This document shows, in pieces, positions 1,903 to 21,506 of a stretch of 64,000 bases of DNA; the stretch's first letter is position 1, and each line of letters starts with the position of its first letter. The DNA lies in the NCBI RefSeq assembly GCF_009741275.1, contig NZ_WOWS01000003.1, positions 434,001 to 498,000 on the forward strand, read 5' to 3'. A program made the position numbers and the translations under genes. The stretch is from Winogradskyella endarachnes (GTDB lineage: Bacteria; Bacteroidota; Bacteroidia; Flavobacteriales; Flavobacteriaceae). Below the pieces are notes generated by a model. It had not been told where the DNA came from, ran no database searches, and saw nothing but the letters and a program-made list of their open reading frames with translations.

Positions 1903-2541
1903 CTATAAGTTTGGTTGAGGGGTTAACCTTAAATATGGCTTAACTTCTTTGTGTCCCTTCGGAAATAATTCTGGAATTTGTTCATTGGTCACAGCAGGTG
2001 AGATTACGCAGTCTTCTCCGTTTTTCCAGTTTGCAGGAGTCGCAACCTTATGGTAAGCTGTTAATTGTAAAGAATCTACTACTCTTAATAATTCTTCAAA
2101 ATTTCTACCAGTTGAAGCAGGATACACAATGATTAATTTTACTTTCTTATCAGGATCTATAACAAATACAGATCTAACGGTTAAATTATTGTCTGCATTT
2201 GGATGAATCATATCATACAAATTTGAAACTTTTTTATCTTCATCTGCTATAATAGGAAAATCTACAGACGTGCTCTGTGTTTCATTAATATCTTTAATCC
2301 AGCTTTTGTGAGAGGAAAGACCATCTACACTTAAAGCTATGGTTTTTACATTTCTTTTTTCAAATTCACTTTTGTATTTCGCAACAGTCCCTAATTCTGT
2401 TGTGCAAACAGGTGTGTAATCCGCTGGATGAGAAAATAATATTCCCCAACTATCGCCTAACCAATCATGAAAGTTGATTTCTCCTTCTGAAGTTTGTGCT
2501 GTAAAGTTTGGTGCTTCATCACCTAATCTAATTACGCTCAT
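1903..2541 (-). CDS. Peroxiredoxin, 1-Cys (Prx6) type
   Basis: This 212-residue thiol peroxidase reduces hydrogen peroxide and organic hydroperoxides. The conserved active-site motif HPADYTPVCTTE places the peroxidatic cysteine at C46, with T43 and R123 completing the usual active site. The PVCTTE form plus a C-terminal extension of about 50 residues is typical of the Prx6 subfamily rather than the AhpC/Prx1 type. A second cysteine, C178, lies in the tail (GEDCVISP), but whether it resolves the disulfide cannot be told from sequence. The gene is monocistronic, with its own terminator. Confidence 0.93.
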   Translation of the reverse strand: MSVIRLGDEAPNFTAQTSEGEINFHDWLGDSWGILFSHPADYTPVCTTELGTVAKYKSEFEKRNVKTIALSVDGLSSHKSWIKDINETQSTSVDFPIIADEDKKVSNLYDMIHPNADNNLTVRSVFVIDPDKKVKLIIVYPASTGRNFEELLRVVDSLQLTAYHKVATPANWKNGEDCVISPAVTNEQIPELFPKGHKEVKPYLRLTPQPNL

Positions 2542-2611
2542 ATTATTTAATTTTTAAAGATTAATATTTTTTAAAACTCTTAACGTTTAAATTATTTGTT
2601 GCTTTAGTCTC

Positions 2612-3886
2612 TTATTTTGGATATTTCTTATTGATTTTATCCAAACATAAATTATGAATACTTCCAATATGCGAATGTTCTTTTCCTAAATCGGGTTGAT
2701 ACGTTCCGTCTTGTACTTGGCTACCAATTTTTTGATAGGCTTCTCTAAAACTCATACCATCAACTACCAAATTATTGATGCTATCTACCGTAAATAAGTA
2801 TTGGTATTTCTCATCGTTAAGGTCAATATCTTTTACAATGATTTGCTGAATGGCATACGTAAAAATGTCTAAAATGTCTTTTACATCTTCAAAAGCATTG
2901 ATAATGTTTTCTTTTAATAATTGAAAATCTCTATGGTAGCCACTTGGTAGATTATTCGTGATGAGTAGCATTTCAGAATGTAAAGCTTGAATTTTATTGC
3001 ACTTACCTCTAATTAATTCAAACACATCAGGATTCTTTTTGTGTGGCATAATGCTACTTCCTGTGGTTAATTCATCTGGAAATGTAATAAATCCAAAATT
3101 CTGACTCATATACAGACAAATATCCATTGCAAATCGTGCCATGGTATTACACAAACCACCTAAGGCACTCGCAATAGCACGTTCGCTTTTTCCTCGGCTC
3201 AATTGTGCTGCAACTACATTATATTTTAAAGTTGAAAACCCTAATTCTTTTGTTGTAATTTCTCTATCTATAGGAAATGAACTTCCGTAACCAGCGGCCG
3301 AACCTAAAACATTTTGATCGGTAATTTTTGATACAGCATTTAAAACGTAAACATCATCAATTAATAATTCCCCATAGGCCGAAAACCACAATCCGAAAGA
3401 GGATGGCATGGCAACCTGTAAATGTGTATAACCAGGTAAAAGTTTTGTTTTATGTGTTTCAGCAAGGTCTAAAAGTGTATCGAAAAACGTCTTCGTTTTA
3501 TCATTTATGATTTGTAAGTTTTCTTTGTAGTATAACTGAAGTGCGACTAAAACTTGGTCGTTTCTAGAACGTGCGGTGTGTATTTTTTTTCCGACATCGC
3601 CTAAGGTTTTTGTAAGCTCGTGTTCAATTTTAGAATGTACATCTTCAAAGGTGTCTTCAATAGTAAATGTGCCAGCTTCAATAGATTCTGCTAAAACCTT
3701 TAATCCTGATTTTAATTGTTCTAATTCATCCGAACTAATAATTCCGATAGTTTCTAACATAATGGCATGCGCTAAAGAGGCTTGCACATCGTATTTTGCA
3801 ATATGCATGTCAATTTCTCGGTCGTTACCAACGGTGAATAATTCTATTTTTTTATCTATTGAAAAGCCTTTGTCCCAAAGTTTCAT
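2612..3886 (-). CDS. argH: Argininosuccinate lyase
   Basis: This enzyme cleaves argininosuccinate to arginine and fumarate, the last step of arginine synthesis. The superfamily signature GSSIMPHKKNPD, carrying the catalytic serine, is intact, as are HTARSRNDQ and the GYTHLQ histidine motif. I place the start at ATG 3886, giving a protein that begins MKLWDKGFS. An in-frame ATG 33 bases upstream would add residues encoded by a palindromic repeat and is unlikely. At 424 residues it is somewhat shorter than the roughly 460 of the enterobacterial enzyme. It is the last gene of the arg operon and is separated from the preceding gene by repeats. Confidence 0.95.
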   Translation of the reverse strand: MKLWDKGFSIDKKIELFTVGNDREIDMHIAKYDVQASLAHAIMLETIGIISSDELEQLKSGLKVLAESIEAGTFTIEDTFEDVHSKIEHELTKTLGDVGKKIHTARSRNDQVLVALQLYYKENLQIINDKTKTFFDTLLDLAETHKTKLLPGYTHLQVAMPSSFGLWFSAYGELLIDDVYVLNAVSKITDQNVLGSAAGYGSSFPIDREITTKELGFSTLKYNVVAAQLSRGKSERAIASALGGLCNTMARFAMDICLYMSQNFGFITFPDELTTGSSIMPHKKNPDVFELIRGKCNKIQALHSEMLLITNNLPSGYHRDFQLLKENIINAFEDVKDILDIFTYAIQQIIVKDIDLNDEKYQYLFTVDSINNLVVDGMSFREAYQKIGSQVQDGTYQPDLGKEHSHIGSIHNLCLDKINKKYPK

Positions 3887-3898
3887 AATATATTCCTT

Positions 3899-3932
3899 CG
3901 AAGGCAGTCCCGAAACCATCGGGATGCCTTCA
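3899..3932. repeat. Palindromic repeat in the argH leader
   Basis: GAAGGC-x-GTCCCGA and TCGGGAT-GCCTTC form an imperfect stem of about 13 bp around a five-base loop (AACCA). It ends only about 13 bases upstream of the argH start, so a transcript from the upstream arg genes would carry this hairpin next to the start codon. It belongs with the other palindromes of the arg operon. Read on the plus strand it is followed by T6, but no plus-strand gene ends here. Confidence 0.7.
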
Positions 3933-3967
3933 TTTTTTAATTATACTTAATTCTTTATTCTTAGCTT

Positions 3968-3982
3968 AGACCTGCTAGGTCT
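3968..3982. repeat. Short AGACCTGCTAGGTCT palindrome
   Basis: A 15-base palindrome, AGACCTGCTAGGTCT, lies in the gap between argH and the argE-like gene. A longer relative is found at 10041-10072 in the same operon, between argC and argG, sharing AGACCTGCTAGGT. The two appear to be members of one dispersed repeat family. Confidence 0.65.
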
Positions 3983-3994
3983 ATCGTCTTTTTT

Positions 3995-4068
3995 GTCATT
4001 CCTGCGAAGGCAGGAATCTATTTTTAAATTTCAGTTTGTGTTTGGATTCCTGCCTTCGCAGGAATGAC
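3995..4068. repeat. 74-bp repeat element with perfect 24-bp inverted arms
   Basis: The arms at 3995-4018 and 4045-4068 are exact reverse complements over 24 bases. Each is itself a hairpin built on CCTGCGAAGGCAGG or its complement. The outer ends read GTCATTCC and GGAATGAC, and the spacer is 26 bases. A second element of the same design lies at 5924-5988. The element sits between argH and the argE-like stop codon at 4075, in non-coding DNA. It looks like a non-autonomous palindromic element and no transposase gene is present. Confidence 0.9.
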
Positions 4069-4074
4069 AGCATC

Positions 4075-5136
4075 TTACAATACCTTCTCCAACAACTTAA
4101 TATACAAATCAACACCTTCTTCAATCTCAGCCAAATAAATAAACTCATCTGCGGTATGCGAACGCGTGCTGTCTCCTGGTCCTAATTTTAAGGACTGACA
4201 AGTTAAAACAGATTGGTCAGAAAGCGTTGGCGAACCGTAAGTTTCTCTTCCTAATGCAATGCCTGCTTTTACTAGTTCATGATGACTAGAAATTGAGGAT
4301 GAATTTAATCGTAAACTTCTAGCAGTAATACTAGAACATGGCGATTTTTGAGTTAAAATATCTGCAATTTCTTGATTGGTGTATTTGTCATTTACACGTA
4401 CATCAATAACTAAATCCACTTCTGCTGGTACAGCATTGTGTTGTTTGCCTGCGTTAATTTGTGTAACGGTCATTTTTACATCGCCTAAAACTGGTGATTT
4501 TCTTTCAAATTTATACTCTTTAAACCATTTTAAAACATTAATAGTATTGTAAATGGAATTATCATTATTTGGGTGAGCAGCATGGCTAGCGGTTCCTTTT
4601 ACTTTAGCATCAAAAACCACCAAGCCTTTTTCGGCGATGGCTAAATTCATTAAAGTGGGTTCGCCAACAATGGCCACATCGATTTTTGGGATGATACTTA
4701 ACATACTATTTAGTCCGTTTGGACCACTGCTTTCTTCTTCAGCAGATGCCACAATAACTAAGTTGTAGTTGAGGTCTTTTTTATCGTAAAAATATGTGAA
4801 CGTTGCAATTAAAGATACCAAACATCCACCTGCATCATTACTGCCCAAACCGTAAAGTTTCCCGTCTTCTACAATGGCTTTAAATGGGTCTTTAGTGTAA
4901 CCGTTGTTAGGTTTTACCGTATCGTGATGCGAGTTTAATAATAAGGTTGGCTTGCTGTCATCAAAATATTTGTTGGTAGACCAAACATTATGATTATTCC
5001 TTTTAAAAGGGATATGGTGTGTTGTAAACCAATTTTCAATGAGCAATGCCGTGTTATCTTCTTCAGAAGAAAATGACTGTGTTTCTATGAGTTGCTTTAA
5101 TAAAGCAATGGCTTCAGTTGTTAGTTTTTCAATCAT
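4075..5136 (-). CDS. M20-family amidohydrolase, probable N-acyl-citrulline/ornithine deacylase
   Basis: This is a 353-residue metallopeptidase-fold hydrolase of the ArgE/DapE (M20) family. Metal-binding motifs are visible in order: NSHHDTV, GSNDAGG, the acidic pair in SAEEESSG, VGEPT, and a C-terminal SHTADEF histidine. Because this operon encodes an acyl-ornithine carbamoyltransferase, the likely substrate is the N-acylated citrulline made by that enzyme, so it would release citrulline for argG. Whether the acyl group is acetyl or succinyl is not decided by sequence. I chose ATG 5136, which overlaps the argB stop as ATGA; the 20-codon longer frame would overlap argB deeply. Confidence 0.88.
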   Translation of the reverse strand: MIEKLTTEAIALLKQLIETQSFSSEEDNTALLIENWFTTHHIPFKRNNHNVWSTNKYFDDSKPTLLLNSHHDTVKPNNGYTKDPFKAIVEDGKLYGLGSNDAGGCLVSLIATFTYFYDKKDLNYNLVIVASAEEESSGPNGLNSMLSIIPKIDVAIVGEPTLMNLAIAEKGLVVFDAKVKGTASHAAHPNNDNSIYNTINVLKWFKEYKFERKSPVLGDVKMTVTQINAGKQHNAVPAEVDLVIDVRVNDKYTNQEIADILTQKSPCSSITARSLRLNSSSISSHHELVKAGIALGRETYGSPTLSDQSVLTCQSLKLGPGDSTRSHTADEFIYLAEIEEGVDLYIKLLEKVL

Positions 5137-5909
5137 TTTGTGATGGTTGTATGTTTGTTGTTGGTATGGAAAAGCATCTCTGATTTTCCGATACAAACTT
5201 TTTGAACGTTTTTATTTATAGCGTGAAAACAGTTATCTAATTTAGGTAGCATGCCTTCGAAAATGATATTGTTTTCTTTTAATGTTTTGTAGCTTTCTAT
5301 GTTGATGTTTTCGATAACGGAATCCTCATTTTCTACATCTTCAAGCACACCATTTTTCTCAAAACAATAGTATAATTCAGTGTTGAAAACGGTAGATAAG
5401 CCAATCGCTAATTCCGAAGCAATCGTATCGGCATTGGTATTTAGTAATTGGCCGTTTTCGTCATGAGAAATTGCACAAAATACAGGCGTAATGTTATTGT
5501 TTAGTAATACTTCTAAAGCGTCAGTGTTTACTTTTTTTACATCGCCAACAAAACCGTAATCTATGGTTTTAATAGGTCGTTTTTCTGAAACAATAGTGTT
5601 GCCATCTGCACCAGAAAACCCAATAGCATTGCAATGATGCGCCTGTAATTGCGCTACAATGTTTTTGTTGATTTTACCTGCGTAAACCATGGTAATAATA
5701 TCTAAAGTCGCTGCGTCAGTAATACGTCTACCTTCATGCATTTTTACTGGAATATTCATTTGTTCGGCTAATTTAGTGGCTATTTTTCCACCACCATGCA
5801 CCAAAACTTTAGGGCCAGATATGGTTGCGAAATCTTTGATGAATTCAGCTAAGGCTTCTTCGTTATCGATGATGTTTCCACCTATTTTTATGACTTTTAT
5901 TGTTTTCAT
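5133..5909 (-). CDS. argB: N-acetyl(acyl)glutamate kinase
   Basis: This 258-residue amino-acid kinase-fold protein phosphorylates the gamma-carboxylate of N-acylglutamate. Visible motifs are KIGGN at 8-12, VHGGGK, GRRITD, NTNADT and GMLPK near the end, which together form the substrate and ATP sites. In Bacteroides the same family works on N-succinylglutamate, so the acyl group here is uncertain. Its stop codon overlaps the start of the downstream deacylase by four bases, indicating translational coupling. A palindromic repeat lies 15 bases upstream of the start. Confidence 0.94.
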   Translation of the reverse strand: MKTIKVIKIGGNIIDNEEALAEFIKDFATISGPKVLVHGGGKIATKLAEQMNIPVKMHEGRRITDAATLDIITMVYAGKINKNIVAQLQAHHCNAIGFSGADGNTIVSEKRPIKTIDYGFVGDVKKVNTDALEVLLNNNITPVFCAISHDENGQLLNTNADTIASELAIGLSTVFNTELYYCFEKNGVLEDVENEDSVIENINIESYKTLKENNIIFEGMLPKLDNCFHAINKNVQKVCIGKSEMLFHTNNKHTTITK

Positions 5910-5923
5910 ATTATTAATTTTTT

Positions 5924-5988
5924 GTCATTCCCGTGAAAACGGGAATCCACAAATGTTAATTTTAGATTCCTGCCTGCGCAGGAATGAC
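5924..5988. repeat. 65-bp repeat element, second copy of the GTCATTCC family
   Basis: Left arm 5924-5947 is a hairpin with stem ATTCCCGT/ACGGGAAT and outer GTCATTCC. Right arm 5965-5988 is a hairpin with stem TTCCTGC/GCAGGAA and outer GGAATGAC. The outer bases are shared with the 3995-4068 element while the hairpin cores differ, so the cores evolve by compensating changes. It fills the argF'-argB gap and starts 15 bases upstream of the argB start codon. Confidence 0.88.
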
Positions 5989-6000
5989 AATGGATTATCA

Positions 6001-6936
6001 TCATAGTTTTTCTAAAATCTGCTTCAACACTATTTGCGCAGCATAAGTTCTATTGTTTGCTTGTTTAATAACTACAGATTGTTCGCTGTCTAAAACCGCA
6101 TCTTCTACAATTACATTTCGTCTTACAGGTAAGCAATGCATAAATTTTGCATGTCCTAATTTAGCTTTAGTGAGCATCCAATTGTTATCTTGATTTAATA
6201 CTTTTCCATAATCGTTATAACTGCTCCAGTTTTTTACGTACACAAAATCGGCATCTTTTAAAGCGTCTTCTTGGTTGTAATTTATGGGTGTGTCTTTAGT
6301 GATTTCTTCGCTTAATTCGTAACCTTCAGGATGTGTAATAGTTAAATCTACTTCTAACTCTTGCATCATTTCTACAAACGAATTGGCAACCGCTTGCGGT
6401 AAAGCCTTTGGGTGAGGTGCCCAAGACAGTACTACTTTTGGTTTTGCTTTCTCTGTAAGTTCAGTTATGGTTATAGCATCAGCCAAAGCTTGTAATGGAT
6501 GGGCCGTTGCACTTTCCATGTTTACAATTGGCACTGTTGCATATTTTTTAAAATTATTAAGAATGTATTCCGATTCGTCTTTTGCTTTATCTTGAAGTGT
6601 TGGAAAAGCCCTCACAGCAATGACATCTGCGTATTGCGAAATGACCTGAGCTGCCTCCTTGATGTGTTCAGATTTATCCATATTCATTATGGTGCTATCT
6701 TCAAATTCTAAATTCCAAGCATCGTTGATGTTTAAAATCATCACTTCCATACCTAAGTTTTTTGCAGCTTTTTCGGTACTTAATCGTGTTCTTAAACTCG
6801 AATTAAAAAAGAGCATTACTAAGGTTTTGTGTTTTCCTAAATCTTGAAATTCAAATGGGTTCATCTTTAATAAAATGGCATCCTTAATAGTTTCAGAAAG
6901 GTTGGAAATATCTTTTATTTTGGTGTAGTTTTTCAT
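6001..6936 (-). CDS. argF': N-acyl-L-ornithine carbamoyltransferase (SOTCase/AOTCase group)
   Basis: This transfers the carbamoyl group of carbamoyl phosphate to an N-acylated ornithine. The carbamoyl-phosphate loop is FFNSSLRTR (residues 43-51), the form found in acyl-ornithine enzymes, instead of the STRT of ordinary ornithine carbamoyltransferase. HCLPVRRN lies near the C-terminus. At the position known to set acetyl versus succinyl specificity (Pro90 in the Bacteroides fragilis enzyme, Glu92 in Xanthomonas) it has Ser89, in DKSEH. The acyl group is therefore not predicted. The start ATG 6936 gives 311 residues; an upstream in-frame ATG four codons earlier is possible but less likely. Confidence 0.92.
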   Translation of the reverse strand: MKNYTKIKDISNLSETIKDAILLKMNPFEFQDLGKHKTLVMLFFNSSLRTRLSTEKAAKNLGMEVMILNINDAWNLEFEDSTIMNMDKSEHIKEAAQVISQYADVIAVRAFPTLQDKAKDESEYILNNFKKYATVPIVNMESATAHPLQALADAITITELTEKAKPKVVLSWAPHPKALPQAVANSFVEMMQELEVDLTITHPEGYELSEEITKDTPINYNQEDALKDADFVYVKNWSSYNDYGKVLNQDNNWMLTKAKLGHAKFMHCLPVRRNVIVEDAVLDSEQSVVIKQANNRTYAAQIVLKQILEKL

Positions 6937-6942
6937 CTTTGT

Positions 6943-6957
6943 GCCCACGAAAGTGGG
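6943..6957. repeat. Short CCCAC-GAAA-GTGGG hairpin
   Basis: A small stem-loop with a GAAA loop occupies most of the 32-base gap between argD and argF', seven bases upstream of the argF' start. CCCACGAAAGTAGG at 47281-47294, upstream of engB, matches it with one arm changed. It may be a trimmed member of the palindrome families in this operon, or a translation-control hairpin. Confidence 0.5.
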
Positions 6958-6968
6958 TAACTGTTTAA

Positions 6969-8096
6969 TTAAACTAATTCTTTTTCTAAAGCTTCAAAAA
7001 ATACGTCAATATGCTTTTTCTGAATGGTTAAAGGTGGAAGAATCCTTAATAAGTTAGGATTTTTAGCACTTCCTGTAAAAATATGGTGGTCAAAAATTAA
7101 CTTCTTCCGTAAGTCTGAAATTGGAAAATCAAATTCTAAACCTAACATTAATCCGCGTCCTTTAATCGATTTTAAATGTGGTAAAGACTTTGCTTTTTCT
7201 TGAAAATAGTCTGAAATTATTTTAGCATTTTCCATTAACTTTTCTTCTTCCAAAACTTCTAAAACAGAACGTGTAGCTGCACATGCCAAATGATTACCGC
7301 CAAAGGTTGTACCTAATAAGCCAAAAGATGCTTTAATATTTGGATGAATTAAAATGCCGCCAACCGGAAATCCATTGCCCATGCCTTTGGCTATAGAAAT
7401 AATATCTGGTGATATGTTGTGTTTTTGAAAAGCAAAAAAGTCGCCAGTTCTTCCAAATCCAGATTGTACTTCATCAGCAATTAAAGCGGTATTATATTGT
7501 TTACAAAGTTTGTCTAAACCTTGGTAGAATTCCGTTGTACTTTGGTCTAAACCACCAACACCTTGGATAAATTCAACGATAACAGCACAAGTTTGGTTTT
7601 GTTTTAAGATAGTTTCAACAGCTTCTAAATCGCCTAATTCTACGAAATCAACTTCTTGTTGTGCGTTTATAGGTGCCACAATTTTAGGATTGTCGGTTGC
7701 AGCAACAGCAGCGGACGTTCTACCATGAAACGAATTTTTAAAGGCCAACACTTTGCTTTTACCATTATGAAACGATGCTAGTTTTAAAGCATTCTCGTTG
7801 GCTTCTGCACCAGAATTACATAAAAATAACTGGTAATCTTTACAGCCAGATAAGGCTTCAAGCTTATCCGCTAATTCAACTTGCATTGGGTTTTGAATAG
7901 CATTACTATAAAAACCAAGTTTGCTGACTTGATTAGAAATAGCAGCAACATATTTTGGATGTGAATGTCCGATTGAAATCACAGCATGTCCTCCGTAAAG
8001 GTCTAAATATTCAACATTTTTATCATCGTAAACGTAAATGTCTTTTGCGCTTACTGGTGTAATGTCGAAAAGTGGGTAAACATTAAATAAACTCAT
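6969..8096 (-). CDS. argD: Acetylornithine/acylornithine aminotransferase
   Basis: This is a class III PLP-dependent aminotransferase of 375 residues, which makes N-acylornithine from N-acylglutamate semialdehyde using glutamate. The PLP lysine is K237 in SIAKGMGNGFPVGG, preceded by IADEVQSGFGRTG (206-218), which contains the pyridine-nitrogen aspartate. CNSGAEANENALK at 93-105 binds the cofactor phosphate. The start ATG overlaps the stop of proC as ATGA, so the two are translationally coupled. Confidence 0.93.
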   Translation of the reverse strand: MSLFNVYPLFDITPVSAKDIYVYDDKNVEYLDLYGGHAVISIGHSHPKYVAAISNQVSKLGFYSNAIQNPMQVELADKLEALSGCKDYQLFLCNSGAEANENALKLASFHNGKSKVLAFKNSFHGRTSAAVAATDNPKIVAPINAQQEVDFVELGDLEAVETILKQNQTCAVIVEFIQGVGGLDQSTTEFYQGLDKLCKQYNTALIADEVQSGFGRTGDFFAFQKHNISPDIISIAKGMGNGFPVGGILIHPNIKASFGLLGTTFGGNHLACAATRSVLEVLEEEKLMENAKIISDYFQEKAKSLPHLKSIKGRGLMLGLEFDFPISDLRKKLIFDHHIFTGSAKNPNLLRILPPLTIQKKHIDVFFEALEKELV

Positions 8097-8893
8097 ATCT
8101 GCTCTTTTTTAATGTTATTAATCTTATTAAATGAAGCTACCATACCTTGTATAAGAGAAGAGCTCAGTCCTTTGTGTTCCATTTCGTTGAGTCCTTCAAT
8201 AGTACAACCTTTTGGTGTGGTTACTCTATCAATTTCTTCCTCTGGATGATTACCATTTGTAATTAATAAACTTGCTGCACCTTCACTGGTGTACATGGCT
8301 AGTTCTTGGGCTTCTTTAGCATCAAAACCTAACTGAATGGCAGCTTGTGTTGTTGCTCTGATGAGTCGCATCCAAAATGCAATTCCGCTAGCGCAAACCA
8401 CAGTTGCCGCTTGCATTTGTGATTCAGGAATAGCTAATGTATGTCCTAATCTGTCAAAAATCGCTTCGGCAATTTTAAGGCGTTTTGTACCTTTTTCATT
8501 GCTACACATGCAAGTCATAGATTTACCAACCGCAATGGCTGTATTTGGCATAGCTCTAATGATGAATTGGTCTGTACCAACAATAGCTTCAATTTTAGGA
8601 ATAAGGAATCCGGTTATGGTCGAAATTAAAACGTGTTTTTCTGTTAAATACGGTTTAATATCGTTTAAAATGGTTTCAAAATGTCTGGGTTGTATAGCGA
8701 ATATTAGAATATCGGATTGTTTTACGGCTTCAATATTATCTGTGGTTAAATGCACGTTTTTATACCCTTCTAAATCTTGAATATCGTCCAAGTTACGTTT
8801 GGTTAAATACAATGTGGTTATGGCGTTGTTAGTGATGAGCCCTTTTGCAATGGACTTTCCTAAGTTTCCTGTTCCTATGATTGCTATTTTCAT
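8093..8893 (-). CDS. proC: Pyrroline-5-carboxylate reductase
   Basis: This catalyses the last step of proline synthesis, the NAD(P)H-dependent reduction of pyrroline-5-carboxylate. The Rossmann motif GTGNLG (7-12) is at the N-terminus, and the C-terminal dimerisation domain carries the family signature in the form TTPKGCTIEGLNEME. The protein is 266 residues, the normal size. Its place inside the arginine operon, with a four-base overlap to argD, suggests joint control of the two glutamate-derived pathways. The substrate of the semialdehyde branch also appears in ornithine breakdown. Confidence 0.93.
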   Translation of the reverse strand: MKIAIIGTGNLGKSIAKGLITNNAITTLYLTKRNLDDIQDLEGYKNVHLTTDNIEAVKQSDILIFAIQPRHFETILNDIKPYLTEKHVLISTITGFLIPKIEAIVGTDQFIIRAMPNTAIAVGKSMTCMCSNEKGTKRLKIAEAIFDRLGHTLAIPESQMQAATVVCASGIAFWMRLIRATTQAAIQLGFDAKEAQELAMYTSEGAASLLITNGNHPEEEIDRVTTPKGCTIEGLNEMEHKGLSSSLIQGMVASFNKINNIKKEQI

Positions 8894-19423: not shown

Positions 19424-21103
19424 TTAGAATTCATCAGTTACACATCCTTTAGATGCTGATGATACTGTTTTTGCATATTTGTATAAGACACCACGTTCAA
19501 ACTTTAATTCTGGTGCTTTCCATTTTAGACGTCTTTTTTGTAATTCTGTTTCAGAAACTTCAAGAGAAATGGAATTGGTTTCTGCATCAATGGTAATAAT
19601 ATCACCATCTTTAACTACGGCTATTGTTCCACCTTCTTGAGCTTCAGGTGTAATGTGGCCTACAACAAAACCGTGAGTTCCACCAGAGAATCTTCCATCT
19701 GTAATTAAAGCAACGTCTTTACCTAAACCGGCTCCCATAATTGCGGCGGTTGGTTTTAACATTTCTGGCATTCCAGGGCCGCCTTTTGGGCCTTCATACC
19801 TAATGACAACAACGTCTCCTTTTTCTACTAAACCATCTCTAATACCATCGTTAGCTGCGTATTCTCCTTCGAAAACTTTAGCTTTTCCTCTAAAACTTAA
19901 GCCTTCTTTACCGGTTATTTTTGCAACACTTCCTTCTGAAGCTAAATTGCCATAAAGCATTCTTAAGTGTCCTGAAATTTTAATAGGTTTTTCAATAGGT
20001 TTTATTACATCTTGACCTTTGGTTAAATCTGGTACATCTAATAAATTTTCTGCAATAGTTTTTCCTGTAACGGTTAAACAATCACCATGAATTAAGCCTT
20101 TTTTCAAAAGATATTTTAGTACTGCAGGTATGCCTCCAACAGCATGTACATCTTCCATTAAATATTTACCGCTTGGTTTTAAATCGGCTAAAAATGGCGT
20201 ATTGTCACTTATATCTTGAAAATCTTTCAGTGTAAAATCTATTTGAGCAGCTCTTGCAATAGCTAAAAAATGTAATACAGCGTTTGTAGAACCTCCTAGG
20301 ATAGTAACTAATCTTACGGCATTTTCAAGAGATTTTCTTGTAATTATATCTGAAGGTTTAATGTCTTTTTCTAATAAAGTTCGTAGTGCTTCACCAGCTT
20401 TAACAGATTCTTCTTTTTTTGCATCACTTAATGCAGGATTAGAAGAGTTGAAAGGCAATGTCATCCCAAGAGCTTCAATCGCAGATGCCATTGTGTTTGC
20501 AGTATACATTCCACCGCAAGCACCAGCACCAGGACATGCTTTTTCAACTATATTTTGGTATTCGCCTTCGTCCATAGTTCCAGCAACTTTACTTCCCCAA
20601 GCTTCAAAGGCAGATACAACGTCTAACTTTTTTCCGTTATGACAACCAGAATCTATAGTGCCGCCATAAACTAAAATTGAAGGTCTGTTTAAACGAATCA
20701 TTGCCATTAAAGCGCCAGGCATATTTTTGTCGCATCCAACAACCGTAACTAGCCCATCGTAGCTCATCGCTTGCACTACAGTTTCCATAGAATCTGCAAT
20801 AATATCTCGTGAAGGTAAGGAGTAACGCATTCCTGGTGTTCCCATAGAAATACCATCACTAACACCGATGGTGTTAAAAATTAAACCGACTACGTCTTCG
20901 TTTTTTGTGCCTTCTTTAACCAATTTGGCTAAATCATTAAGGTGCATGTTACAAGGGTTGCCTTCGTAACCTGTACTTGCAATACCAACAATTGGTTTAA
21001 AGAAATCTTCTTTTGTTAATCCAATGGCATGCAACATAGCTTGTGCTGCTGGTTGAGTAGGATCTTGGGTTACTGTTTTACTGTATTTATTTAGTTGACT
21101 CAT
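19424..21103 (-). CDS. ilvD: Dihydroxy-acid dehydratase
   Basis: This Fe-S dehydratase makes the 2-oxo acid precursors of valine and isoleucine. The three conserved cluster cysteines are C51 (NPCNMHL), C124 (GCDKNMPG) and C196 ([13 protein letters not shown]). The length of 559 residues is normal. It is the first structural gene of the ilv operon. A 230-base leader upstream of it contains a branched-chain-rich peptide and a terminator, so expression is very probably governed by attenuation. Confidence 0.96.
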
Positions 21104-21280
21104 AGTTTTATTTAGGCAAATTTTATTTGCAAAATCTAAATTAATTGATATGTTATAATTATAGATAAGATTATTATTTTTTAATCTAAATTCAAGATTG
21201 TTAAGTGTAGCTTATTTTATTGTAATTCAATAAGTTAGATTGATTTAAATATGACGTTCAAAAGTGTTAATTTTTTGCAT

Positions 21281-21307
21281 AAAAAAAGCCTTCCGTTTTG
21301 GAAGACT
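21281..21307 (-). terminator. Attenuator terminator of the ilv operon
   Basis: On the minus strand, AGTCTTCC (21307-21300) pairs with GGAAGGCT (21294-21287) around an AAAAC loop and is followed by seven T. It begins 26 bases after the leader peptide stop and lies about 180 bases before the ilvD start, inside the leader transcript. The 5' arm can instead pair with GAAGGC inside the leader peptide coding region (21352-21347), which would prevent the terminator from forming. Confidence 0.85.
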
Positions 21308-21332
21308 TGGAATAAATATATGTTTTAAGTTG

Positions 21333-21407
21333 TTATAACATTCCTTGCCTTCGTAAAATTTTTACGACGCGAACAATAGAAATGATATAAATAAAATGTC
21401 TGTTCAT
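21333..21407 (-). CDS. ilv operon leader peptide (24 aa)
   Basis: This is a 24-codon frame, ATG at 21407 and TAA at 21333, too short for usual gene calling. It encodes five Ile, three Val and two Leu among 24 residues, with the run IYIISIVRVVKIL at residues 6-18. It lies on the same strand as ilvDBNCA and is followed directly by a T-tailed hairpin, which is the classical layout of amino-acid attenuation. The last codons (CGA AGG CAA) are part of the alternative hairpin. Family knowledge: leader peptides of this kind are known for ilv and leu operons of Proteobacteria and have been predicted in Bacteroidota. Confidence 0.8.
   Translation of the reverse strand: MNRHFIYIISIVRVVKILRRQGML
21347..21366 (-). 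promoter_or_regulatory. Pause/antiterminator segment of the ilv leader
   Basis: On the minus strand the leader carries CGTAAAA (21366-21360) and TTTTACG (21358-21352), able to form a pause-type hairpin within the Val-Val-Lys-Ile-Leu codons. Immediately after, GAAGGC (21352-21347) can pair with GTCTTC, the 5' arm of the terminator, with one G-T wobble. These are segments 1, 2, 3 and 4 of a standard attenuator. A ribosome stalled at the Ile/Val codons would cover segment 1 and leave 2 free to pair with 3. Confidence 0.7.
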
Positions 21408-21415
21408 TGTACAAA

Positions 21416-21446
21416 CAAAAATGAGATTTTAATAAATAGTAAACAA
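21416..21446 (-). promoter_or_regulatory. Candidate ilv operon promoter
   Basis: On the minus strand TTG (21446-21444) is followed after 20 bases by CATTTTTG (21423-21416), a 7-of-8 match to the Bacteroidota TAnnTTTG element. The expected start of transcription falls near 21410, almost at the leader peptide ATG, so the leader would be translated with little or no untranslated region. Confidence 0.5.
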
Positions 21447-21476
21447 TATTTTTTGTAAAATAAATGGTAGTAAACC

Positions 21477-21506
21477 AAAAATCCCAATTCATATGAATTG
21501 GGATTT
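21477..21506 (-). terminator. Terminator downstream of tRNA-Phe
   Basis: AAAATCCCAATTC and GAATTGGGATTTT form a perfect 13-bp stem around a four-base centre (ATAT), four bases after the tRNA 3' end. The transcribed strand ends in GGGATTTTTGG. It separates tRNA transcription from the ilv leader. Confidence 0.85.

What the first reader, a model, noticed from the sequence alone, without database searches (positions are those of the whole stretch)
21281..21446. Complete leader-peptide attenuator upstream of the ilvDBNCA operon
Between tRNA-Phe and ilvD, on the ilv strand, lies a 24-codon frame (21407-21333) with five Ile, three Val and two Leu, followed by a T-tailed terminator (21307-21281). The pieces of a classical attenuator are all present: CGTAAAA/TTTTACG inside the codons (pause hairpin), GAAGGC at the end of the frame able to pair with GTCTTC of the terminator 5' arm (antiterminator), and the terminator itself. 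This predicts that starvation for Ile or Val stalls the ribosome and allows ilvD transcription. Such gene-level detail is little described for Bacteroidota, and the peptide is too short for usual annotation. A near-consensus promoter puts the transcript start almost at the leader ATG, so initiation may be essentially leaderless.
Basis: partly seen in the sequence, partly recalled or inferred. Interest (0 to 1): 0.85.

Follow-up and report, generated by a model that had tools for sequence, protein, structure and literature searches.

The report
Isoleucine-valine leader-peptide attenuator before ilvD
A bacterium of the family Flavobacteriaceae very probably switches its isoleucine-valine genes on and off by letting a ribosome read a tiny test peptide: a trick well known in other bacteria but little described in this group, and stacked two or three in a row in some relatives.

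Summary
The minus strand between tRNA-Phe and ilvD carries a 24-codon frame (5 Ile, 3 Val, 2 Leu), a pause hairpin, an antiterminator and a T-tailed terminator. Comparison supports the interpretation. Of 213 distinct ilvD upstream regions, 112 have an Ile/Val-rich frame ending just before a terminator. The pause hairpin covaries. Leader ends fit their own terminator better than other species' leader ends do (p about 3e-19, leaders taken as independent). Modelled stalling puts Ile6-Val15 before the switch point and both Leu codons after it, so the device should sense Ile and Val, not Leu. A very short or absent 5' UTR is plausible (45 of 92 relatives with a scorable promoter box). Two additions: 21 regions carry two or three attenuators in series, type A before type B in all 15 having both; and a separate conserved promoter/operator of about 140 bp lies between terminator and ilvD. 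No expression data were available. A new member of a known kind, with unusual relatives.

The parts
21444..21446 (-). TTG, -33-like element of promoter P1
   Evidence: starts 23 nt before the -7-like box
21416..21423 (-). CATTTTTG, -7-like box of P1 (consensus TAnnTTTG, one mismatch); an alternative TTTGTTTG lies at 21419-21412
   Evidence: consensus and -12 to -5 position from PMC9723704 section 15
21333..21407 (-). leader peptide frame, 24 codons, MNRHFIYIISIVRVVKILRRQGML
   Evidence: similar frames in relatives
21349..21369 (-). pause (1:2) hairpin overlapping codons 13-20
   Evidence: covariation (5 of 7 pairs of this helix with changes on both sides)
21339..21352 (-). antiterminator 5' side: GAAGGC (21352-21347) and GGAAUG (21344-21339)
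   Evidence: swap test
21301..21314 (-). antiterminator 3' side: UAUUCC (21314-21309) and GUCUUC (21306-21301), overlapping the terminator 5' arm
21281..21308 (-). intrinsic terminator: arms 21308-21300 and 21294-21286, T-run 21287-21281
   Evidence: pair counts
21125..21265 (-). second element: conserved promoter/operator P2 (TTGAACGTCAT 21261-21251, TGAATTTAG 21194-21186, -7-like TAATTTAG 21143-21136)
19424..21103 (-). ilvD, first gene of the operon
   Evidence: TIGR00110, 742.3 bits
17602..19338 (-). ilvB
   Evidence: TIGR00118
16969..17499 (-). ilvN
   Evidence: TIGR00119
15322..16824 (-). ilvC
   Evidence: TIGR00465, NF003557
13973..15241 (-). ilvA
   Evidence: NF006390, TIGR02079

Best explanation
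A classical ribosome-mediated transcription attenuator of the ilvDBNCA operon. Transcription starts at or within a few nucleotides of the leader ATG (inferred). With Ile and Val plentiful, the ribosome runs to the stop codon, covers GAAGGC and GGAAUG, and the terminator forms before ilvD. When charged tRNA-Ile or tRNA-Val is short, the ribosome stalls at one of codons 6-15, GAAGGC and GGAAUG pair with GUCUUC and UAUUCC, the terminator's 5' arm is occupied and polymerase reads through. With the ribosome still at the start codon, the pause hairpin competes for GAAGGC and the arm stays mostly free, so termination should be the default without translation (inferred; the ribosome-free case was not modelled). 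Leu is not sensed because both Leu codons lie past the switch point. A second, separately conserved promoter-like element between terminator and ilvD probably adds another layer of control. The sequence elements and their conservation are shown; the switching is modelled; function in the cell is inferred.
For: Layout exact. Stall model for the window: terminator 5' arm sequestered 0.81-1.00 for stalls at codons 6-15, 0.49 at Lys16, 0.03 at Ile17, 0.21 at the start codon. Relatives: 112 of 213 distinct ilvD upstream regions carry a leader within 1400 nt, 134 leaders. Of these 133 of 134 have an antiterminator phase and 95.5% have the arm free at the stop codon; in those with a phase I+V are 1133 of 2290 codons up to the switch and 32 of 404 after it, Leu 114 of 2290 and 35 of 404. 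Swap test: own segment mean rank 0.249 against 0.5 expected, Wilcoxon p 3.3e-19; 3'-arm control 0.534, p 0.18. Pause hairpin plus terminator on 37 sequences: 88.6% of cells paired, 41 cells with double changes against 13.6 in shuffles, 0 of 500 shuffles as high on either. Third codon positions vary most, 0.353 against 0.259 and 0.227. Rfam Phe_leader matches 21409-21280 end to end, 30.2 bits, E 0.0034, below its 55-bit cut-off.
Against: At equilibrium the terminator wins at every ribosome position (P 0.99-1.00), so read-through must be kinetic. With the arm defined slightly otherwise, the window's sequestration is only 0.61-0.75 at codons 6-15 and 0.37 at codon 16. Shuffled upstream sequence also gives an antiterminator phase in 83 of 134 cases, so that count alone is weak. 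Column-wise covariation of the antiterminator is modest (3 of 7 pairs with double changes; 9 to 115 of 500 shuffles as high), partly because its register differs between clades. 101 of 213 regions gave no leader, only 12 of 29 distinct genus regions keep it, and L082, whose IlvD is 98% identical, lacks it. The p-values treat related leaders as independent. The leaders were chosen for Ile/Val content, so overall composition is not independent evidence; the before/after contrast is less affected. The -7 box departs from consensus at its first base. No transcript, peptide or growth data.
Confidence: 0.87

Rival explanations
1. The attenuator is vestigial in this species: the ilv operon is driven mainly by the downstream promoter-like element P2, and the leader is in decay.
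For: The P2 element is found in 28 of 29 distinct genus regions, the leader in 12; leader presence is scattered on the IlvD tree (37 changes, shuffled mean 41.8); window codon 16 is Lys where 33 of 37 aligned leaders have Ile.
Against: Frame, pause hairpin, antiterminator and terminator are all intact and fold well; the window keeps the pause hairpin through an A-U pair where 26 of 37 have G-C.
Confidence: 0.09
2. The short frame is not translated; a riboswitch or T-box-like RNA, or the plain terminator of the tRNA-Phe transcript, explains the region.
For: Strong RNA structure; the terminator lies about 200 nt past tRNA-Phe.
Against: No riboswitch or T-box among Rfam matches at the gathering cut-off in the window or at E<=5 in 21080-21480; tRNA-Phe has its own T-tailed hairpin at 21504-21477 (by eye); coding signal and Ile/Val codons placed before the switch.
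Confidence: 0.03
3. The frame encodes a functional small protein that happens to precede a terminator.
For: Closely related leaders share an N-terminal pattern such as MKKQ.LNIIS.
Against: Length and sequence outside the Ile/Val runs vary between relatives, and its codons form the hairpin arms.
Confidence: 0.01

Closest known systems
Enterobacterial ilvGMEDA / ivbL leader-peptide attenuators (recalled, no call)
   Same: leader peptide rich in control codons, pause hairpin, antiterminator, terminator, first gene of a BCAA operon
   Different: those leaders also carry Leu control codons and a Shine-Dalgarno-led start (recalled); here Leu is outside the modelled sensing stretch and the start is predicted near-leaderless
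Corynebacterium ilvB-II uORF / ilvBNC attenuator (PMC10272879, passages seen)
   Same: BCAA-rich uORF with terminator and antiterminator; the C. glutamicum leader was reported without a ribosome binding site (title of Morbach 2000 seen in its reference list)
   Different: sequence relation not tested; peptide usually 15-17 aa there, 24 aa here; once per genome there, up to three in series in relatives here
Structured 5' leaders of amino-acid operons in Flavobacterium psychrophilum (PMC9723704, passages, section 19 and first part of section 15 seen)
   Same: same family; the authors report strong clues of leader-peptide attenuation
Rfam Phe_leader RF01859
   Same: end-to-end match of the covariance model
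   Different: 30.2 bits, below the 55-bit cut-off; Ile/Val instead of Phe codons
Salmonella mgtCBR tandem attenuators (PMC3641672, abstract and outline seen)
   Same: two leader frames in one leader, as in 21 of the 112 regions with a leader
   Different: two different signals there (ATP, proline); both leaders are Ile/Val-rich here. The window has a single attenuator

Membership tests
ribosome-mediated leader-peptide attenuator | short translated frame enriched in codons for the operon's products | tested here: met
   (sequence evidence of translation only; no ribosome data)
ribosome-mediated leader-peptide attenuator | intrinsic terminator between leader and first gene | tested here: met
ribosome-mediated leader-peptide attenuator | mutually exclusive antiterminator sharing the terminator 5' arm | tested here: met
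   column covariation only modest
ribosome-mediated leader-peptide attenuator | control codons placed so that stalling there frees the antiterminator | tested here: met
   by modelling
ribosome-mediated leader-peptide attenuator | pause hairpin overlapping the end of the control codons | tested here: met
ribosome-mediated leader-peptide attenuator | termination responds to charged tRNA in the cell | not testable with these tools
   needs RNA or reporter data
Rfam Phe_leader RF01859 | score at or above the gathering cut-off | tested here: not met
   30.2 of 55 bits
T-box or known riboswitch | match to a known covariance model | tested here: not met
leaderless mRNA | transcript starts at the AUG | tested here: inconclusive
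   predicted 5' UTR 4 or 0 nt; no 5' end mapped

The most novel reading that the evidence does not exclude
In Flavobacteriaceae the ilv operon carries a modular two-layer control device. One layer is one to three near-leaderless Ile/Val leader-peptide attenuators, of two main terminator types that stand in the order A then B wherever both were found. The other is a fixed-spacing operator and promoter that seems specific to the ilv operon. Either layer can be lost independently. Serial attenuators reading the same amino acids would sharpen the response by multiplying termination.
Probability: 0.55. Interest if true: 0.65.

Novelty: new member of a known kind. Interest (0 to 1): 0.52.

Why it matters
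It gives a base-level, testable case of coupled transcription and translation in Bacteroidota, whose mRNAs lack Shine-Dalgarno sequences (abstract start of PMC6847099 in the listing). If the leader is truly leaderless, a ribosome must load at the 5' end and keep pace with polymerase within about 130 nt. The natural series of one, two and three attenuators among relatives would let one measure what stacking does to the response. The separate conserved promoter-like element points to an unidentified ilv regulator.

Tried and rejected
First scans of the 80 genome-contig loci with other cut-offs were replaced by the scan of all 213 regions.

RNA reading of the downstream element: RNAalifold finds no pair on 131 or 70 sequences; the strongest column correlations are not Watson-Crick and look like two clade forms, so I read it as a promoter/operator, not a structured RNA.

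Regulon of that element: a sequence-only model over 7 genomes gives hits below E 1e-7 only just before ilvD (6 genomes) and once 1.7 kb upstream of it (G226; gene there not identified). The seventh genome, without an ilvD match, has none below E 0.04. Only 150 of the roughly 2,000 to 8,200 first-look candidates per genome were scored, so weaker copies may be missed. Regulator: AsnC/Lrp matches in 60 genus genomes look slightly more numerous where ilvD is present (read by eye), but genome size confounds this; not pursued.

Ancestral tandem state: on a FastTree of 126 IlvD proteins leader, type A, type B and tandem need 37, 28, 10 and 10 changes; shuffled means 41.8, 38.5, 12.6, 12.6, minima 34, 32, 10, 10. 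Only type A falls below every shuffle. Parsimony puts a leader, but neither A, B nor tandem, at the root. An A-B ancestor is not shown.

The element count (129 of 213) rests on a model iterated on the same regions and is not an independent test. The opposite-strand control covers the last 800 nt only. The footprint offset (free RNA from the 13th base past the A-site codon's first base) is recalled, not from a call. No control was run for chance promoter boxes.

Full report
What was checked. The minus strand around 21281-21446 was read. The frame 21407-21333 encodes MNRHFIYIISIVRVVKILRRQGML, with 5 Ile, 3 Val and 2 Leu, as reported. The terminator GUCUUCC-AAAAC-GGAAGGC followed by seven T lies at 21306-21281; with two flanking A-U pairs it is -11.0 kcal/mol. 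tRNA-Phe is at 21585-21510 and is followed by its own T-tailed hairpin at 21504-21477 (by eye), so the leader is not its 3' end. NCBIfam names the downstream genes ilvD, ilvB, ilvN, ilvC and ilvA.

Structure in the window. The 130-nt RNA folds at -25.4 kcal/mol, z -3.65. The antiterminator piece folds into GAAGGC:GUCUUC, a 2x2 internal loop, then GGAAUG:UAUUCC and a weak inner helix, -11.9 kcal/mol, z -3.03. The inner half is compatible with the terminator in the minimum-energy fold, so the switch is the outer helix. Placing a ribosome at each codon and folding what has emerged before the terminator 3' arm gives the expected logic: 0.81-1.00 of the 5' arm is sequestered for stalls at codons 6-15, 0.49 at 16, 0.03 at 17 and 0.01-0.10 after that. 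Ile6, Ile8, Ile9, Ile11, Val12, Val14 and Val15 precede the switch; Ile17, Leu18 and Leu24 follow it. With another choice of arm positions the values are lower, 0.61-0.75 at codons 6-15 and 0.37 at 16, with the same switch. At full length the terminator always wins at equilibrium (P 0.99 or more), so antitermination has to be kinetic.

Relatives. ilvD was found in 38 of 60 genomes of the genus and 154 of 199 of the family. With 80 further stretches this gave 218 loci and 213 distinct upstream regions; the window's own genome is L081 there. L002, Winogradskyella psychrotolerans, falls among the genus members in the IlvD tree, so the host is probably Winogradskyella (inference). In the last 800 nt, 117 of 213 regions have a terminator and 87 have an Ile/Val-rich frame just before one; within 1400 nt 112 of 213 do, with 134 leaders, one kept per terminator. 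Control, last 800 nt: 99 of 142 frame-terminator pairs on the ilvD strand pass the Ile/Val criterion against 1 of 9 on the other strand; between -1400 and -800, 35 of 48 pass on the ilvD strand, other strand not tested. The scan needs an ATG and a recognisable terminator, so it misses some.

Coding and structure evidence. In 37 aligned leaders the third codon position varies most (0.353 against 0.259 and 0.227), and the indels inside the frame ahead of its variable tail are of three or nine bases (by eye). Pause hairpin and terminator together: 88.6% of cells paired and 41 cells with double changes against 13.6 in shuffles, 0 of 500 shuffles as high on either; 8 of 14 pairs have a double change, 3 of 500 shuffles as high; slid versions pair at most 51.5%. 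The window has A-U at a pair where 26 of 37 sequences have G-C. The antiterminator in one fixed register: 89.6% paired, 3 of 7 pairs with double changes, 9 to 115 of 500 shuffles as high by measure, which is weak. Taking the better of two registers, 33 of 37 form at least 6 of 7 pairs. The swap test is stronger: each terminator arm was paired with every species' leader end, and the own segment ranks on average at 0.249, p 3.3e-19 (0.241 over 101 distinct arms); own segments are in the best 5% in 16% of cases; the 3' arm control is 0.534, p 0.18. The window's own rank is 0.045. Relatedness is not corrected for.

Specificity. Over the 133 leaders with an antiterminator phase (134 tested), I+V make 1133 of 2290 codons up to the modelled switch and 32 of 404 after it; Leu makes 114 of 2290 and 35 of 404. 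The sensing stretch is thus poor in Leu. Shuffled upstream parts give a phase in 83 of 134, so the count of 133 is not strong alone.

Start of the transcript. The F. psychrophilum consensus TAnnTTTG sits at -12 to -5 (PMC9723704, section 15). Of 112 first leaders, 92 have a scorable box; in 45 of these it ends at most 9 nt before the ATG, a predicted 5' UTR of at most 5 nt; in 4 of the 45 the gap is 3 nt or less, which would put the start inside the frame. In the window the gap is 8 nt (4 for an alternative box). That paper gives a median 5' UTR of 24 nt and 5.5% leaderless mRNAs. AT-rich DNA yields chance boxes and no control was run, so this is plausible only.

Series of attenuators. 21 of the 112 regions with a leader have more than one: 20 have two and L208 has three, each with its own terminator. 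By terminator sequence (my own pattern classes), type A (CCTTCC-like) precedes type B (CCTGTATC-like) in 15 of 15 regions having both; of 91 single leaders 55 are A, 17 B and 19 others. The tree does not establish an A-B ancestor. The window has A only.

A second element. Between terminator and ilvD lies a pattern of blocks at nearly fixed spacing: TTGAAyATsATA, TTAA, TGATnATCA, TTAA, TTGAATTTAG at about +67 and a -7-like TAATTTAG or TATCTTTG at about +118. It is found in 129 of 213 regions at E<=1e-5 (the model was iterated on these regions). In eight regions the match lies near -1040 instead (one of them only at E 0.11); in L035 the sequence between reads by eye as ilvE, so the element seems to precede the first ilv gene. 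It follows the leader's terminator in 59 of 59 regions having both. 70 regions have it without a leader, 53 have a leader without it, 31 have neither. RNAalifold finds no pair. Rfam at E<=5 gives only a 17-nt microRNA-model match there, E 1.9. In 7 genomes the strong hits are all at or near ilvD. I read it as a second promoter with an operator for an unknown, possibly ilv-dedicated, regulator.

Literature. Nine searches were made. No title or abstract start listed describes an ilv attenuator in Bacteroidota; the lists show only 20 of 22, 20 of 113, 8 of 16 and 8 of 68 papers, and the library holds open-licence papers only. PMC9723704 (passages, section 19, first part of section 15) reports strong clues of leader-peptide attenuation before amino-acid operons in F. 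psychrophilum. PMC7366714 (passages) mentions sORFs reminiscent of leader peptides in B. thetaiotaomicron. PMC10272879 (passages) describes the Corynebacterium uORF. PMC3641672 (abstract, outline) describes tandem attenuators with two different signals. PMC2965389, PMC8632094 and PMC4833913 (passages) showed no Bacteroidota ilv case. Lopatovskaya 2010, seen only as a citation, may already hold Bacteroidetes predictions.

Verdict. For the window it is a new member of a known kind; the stacked versions and the second element are the less expected parts.

Noticed in passing
window 21265-21125 (-); most of L081-L218: Conserved promoter/operator-like element of about 140 bp with nearly fixed block spacing before the ilv operon, kept in many relatives without the attenuator; its regulator is unknown.
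   Followed up: partly
L005, L007, L013, L029, L030, L031, L047, L054, L117, L126, L128, L131, L134, L135, L147, L149, L171, L172, L177, L198, L208: Two (L208: three) Ile/Val-rich leader frames with terminators in series; type A before type B in the 15 regions having both.
   Followed up: partly
L082, L083, L105, L111: Genus or family relatives that keep the hairpin seen behind tRNA-Phe in the window but have no ilv leader; L105 seems to keep remnants of the terminator (by eye).
   Followed up: no
genus genomes: 22 of 60 genus genomes have no ilvD match, 17 of 52 among those at least 90% complete and at most 5% contaminated, which suggests frequent loss of branched-chain amino-acid synthesis.
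   Followed up: no
window 21409-21280 (-): End-to-end sub-threshold match to the Rfam Phe_leader model (30.2 bits, E 0.0034).
   Followed up: no
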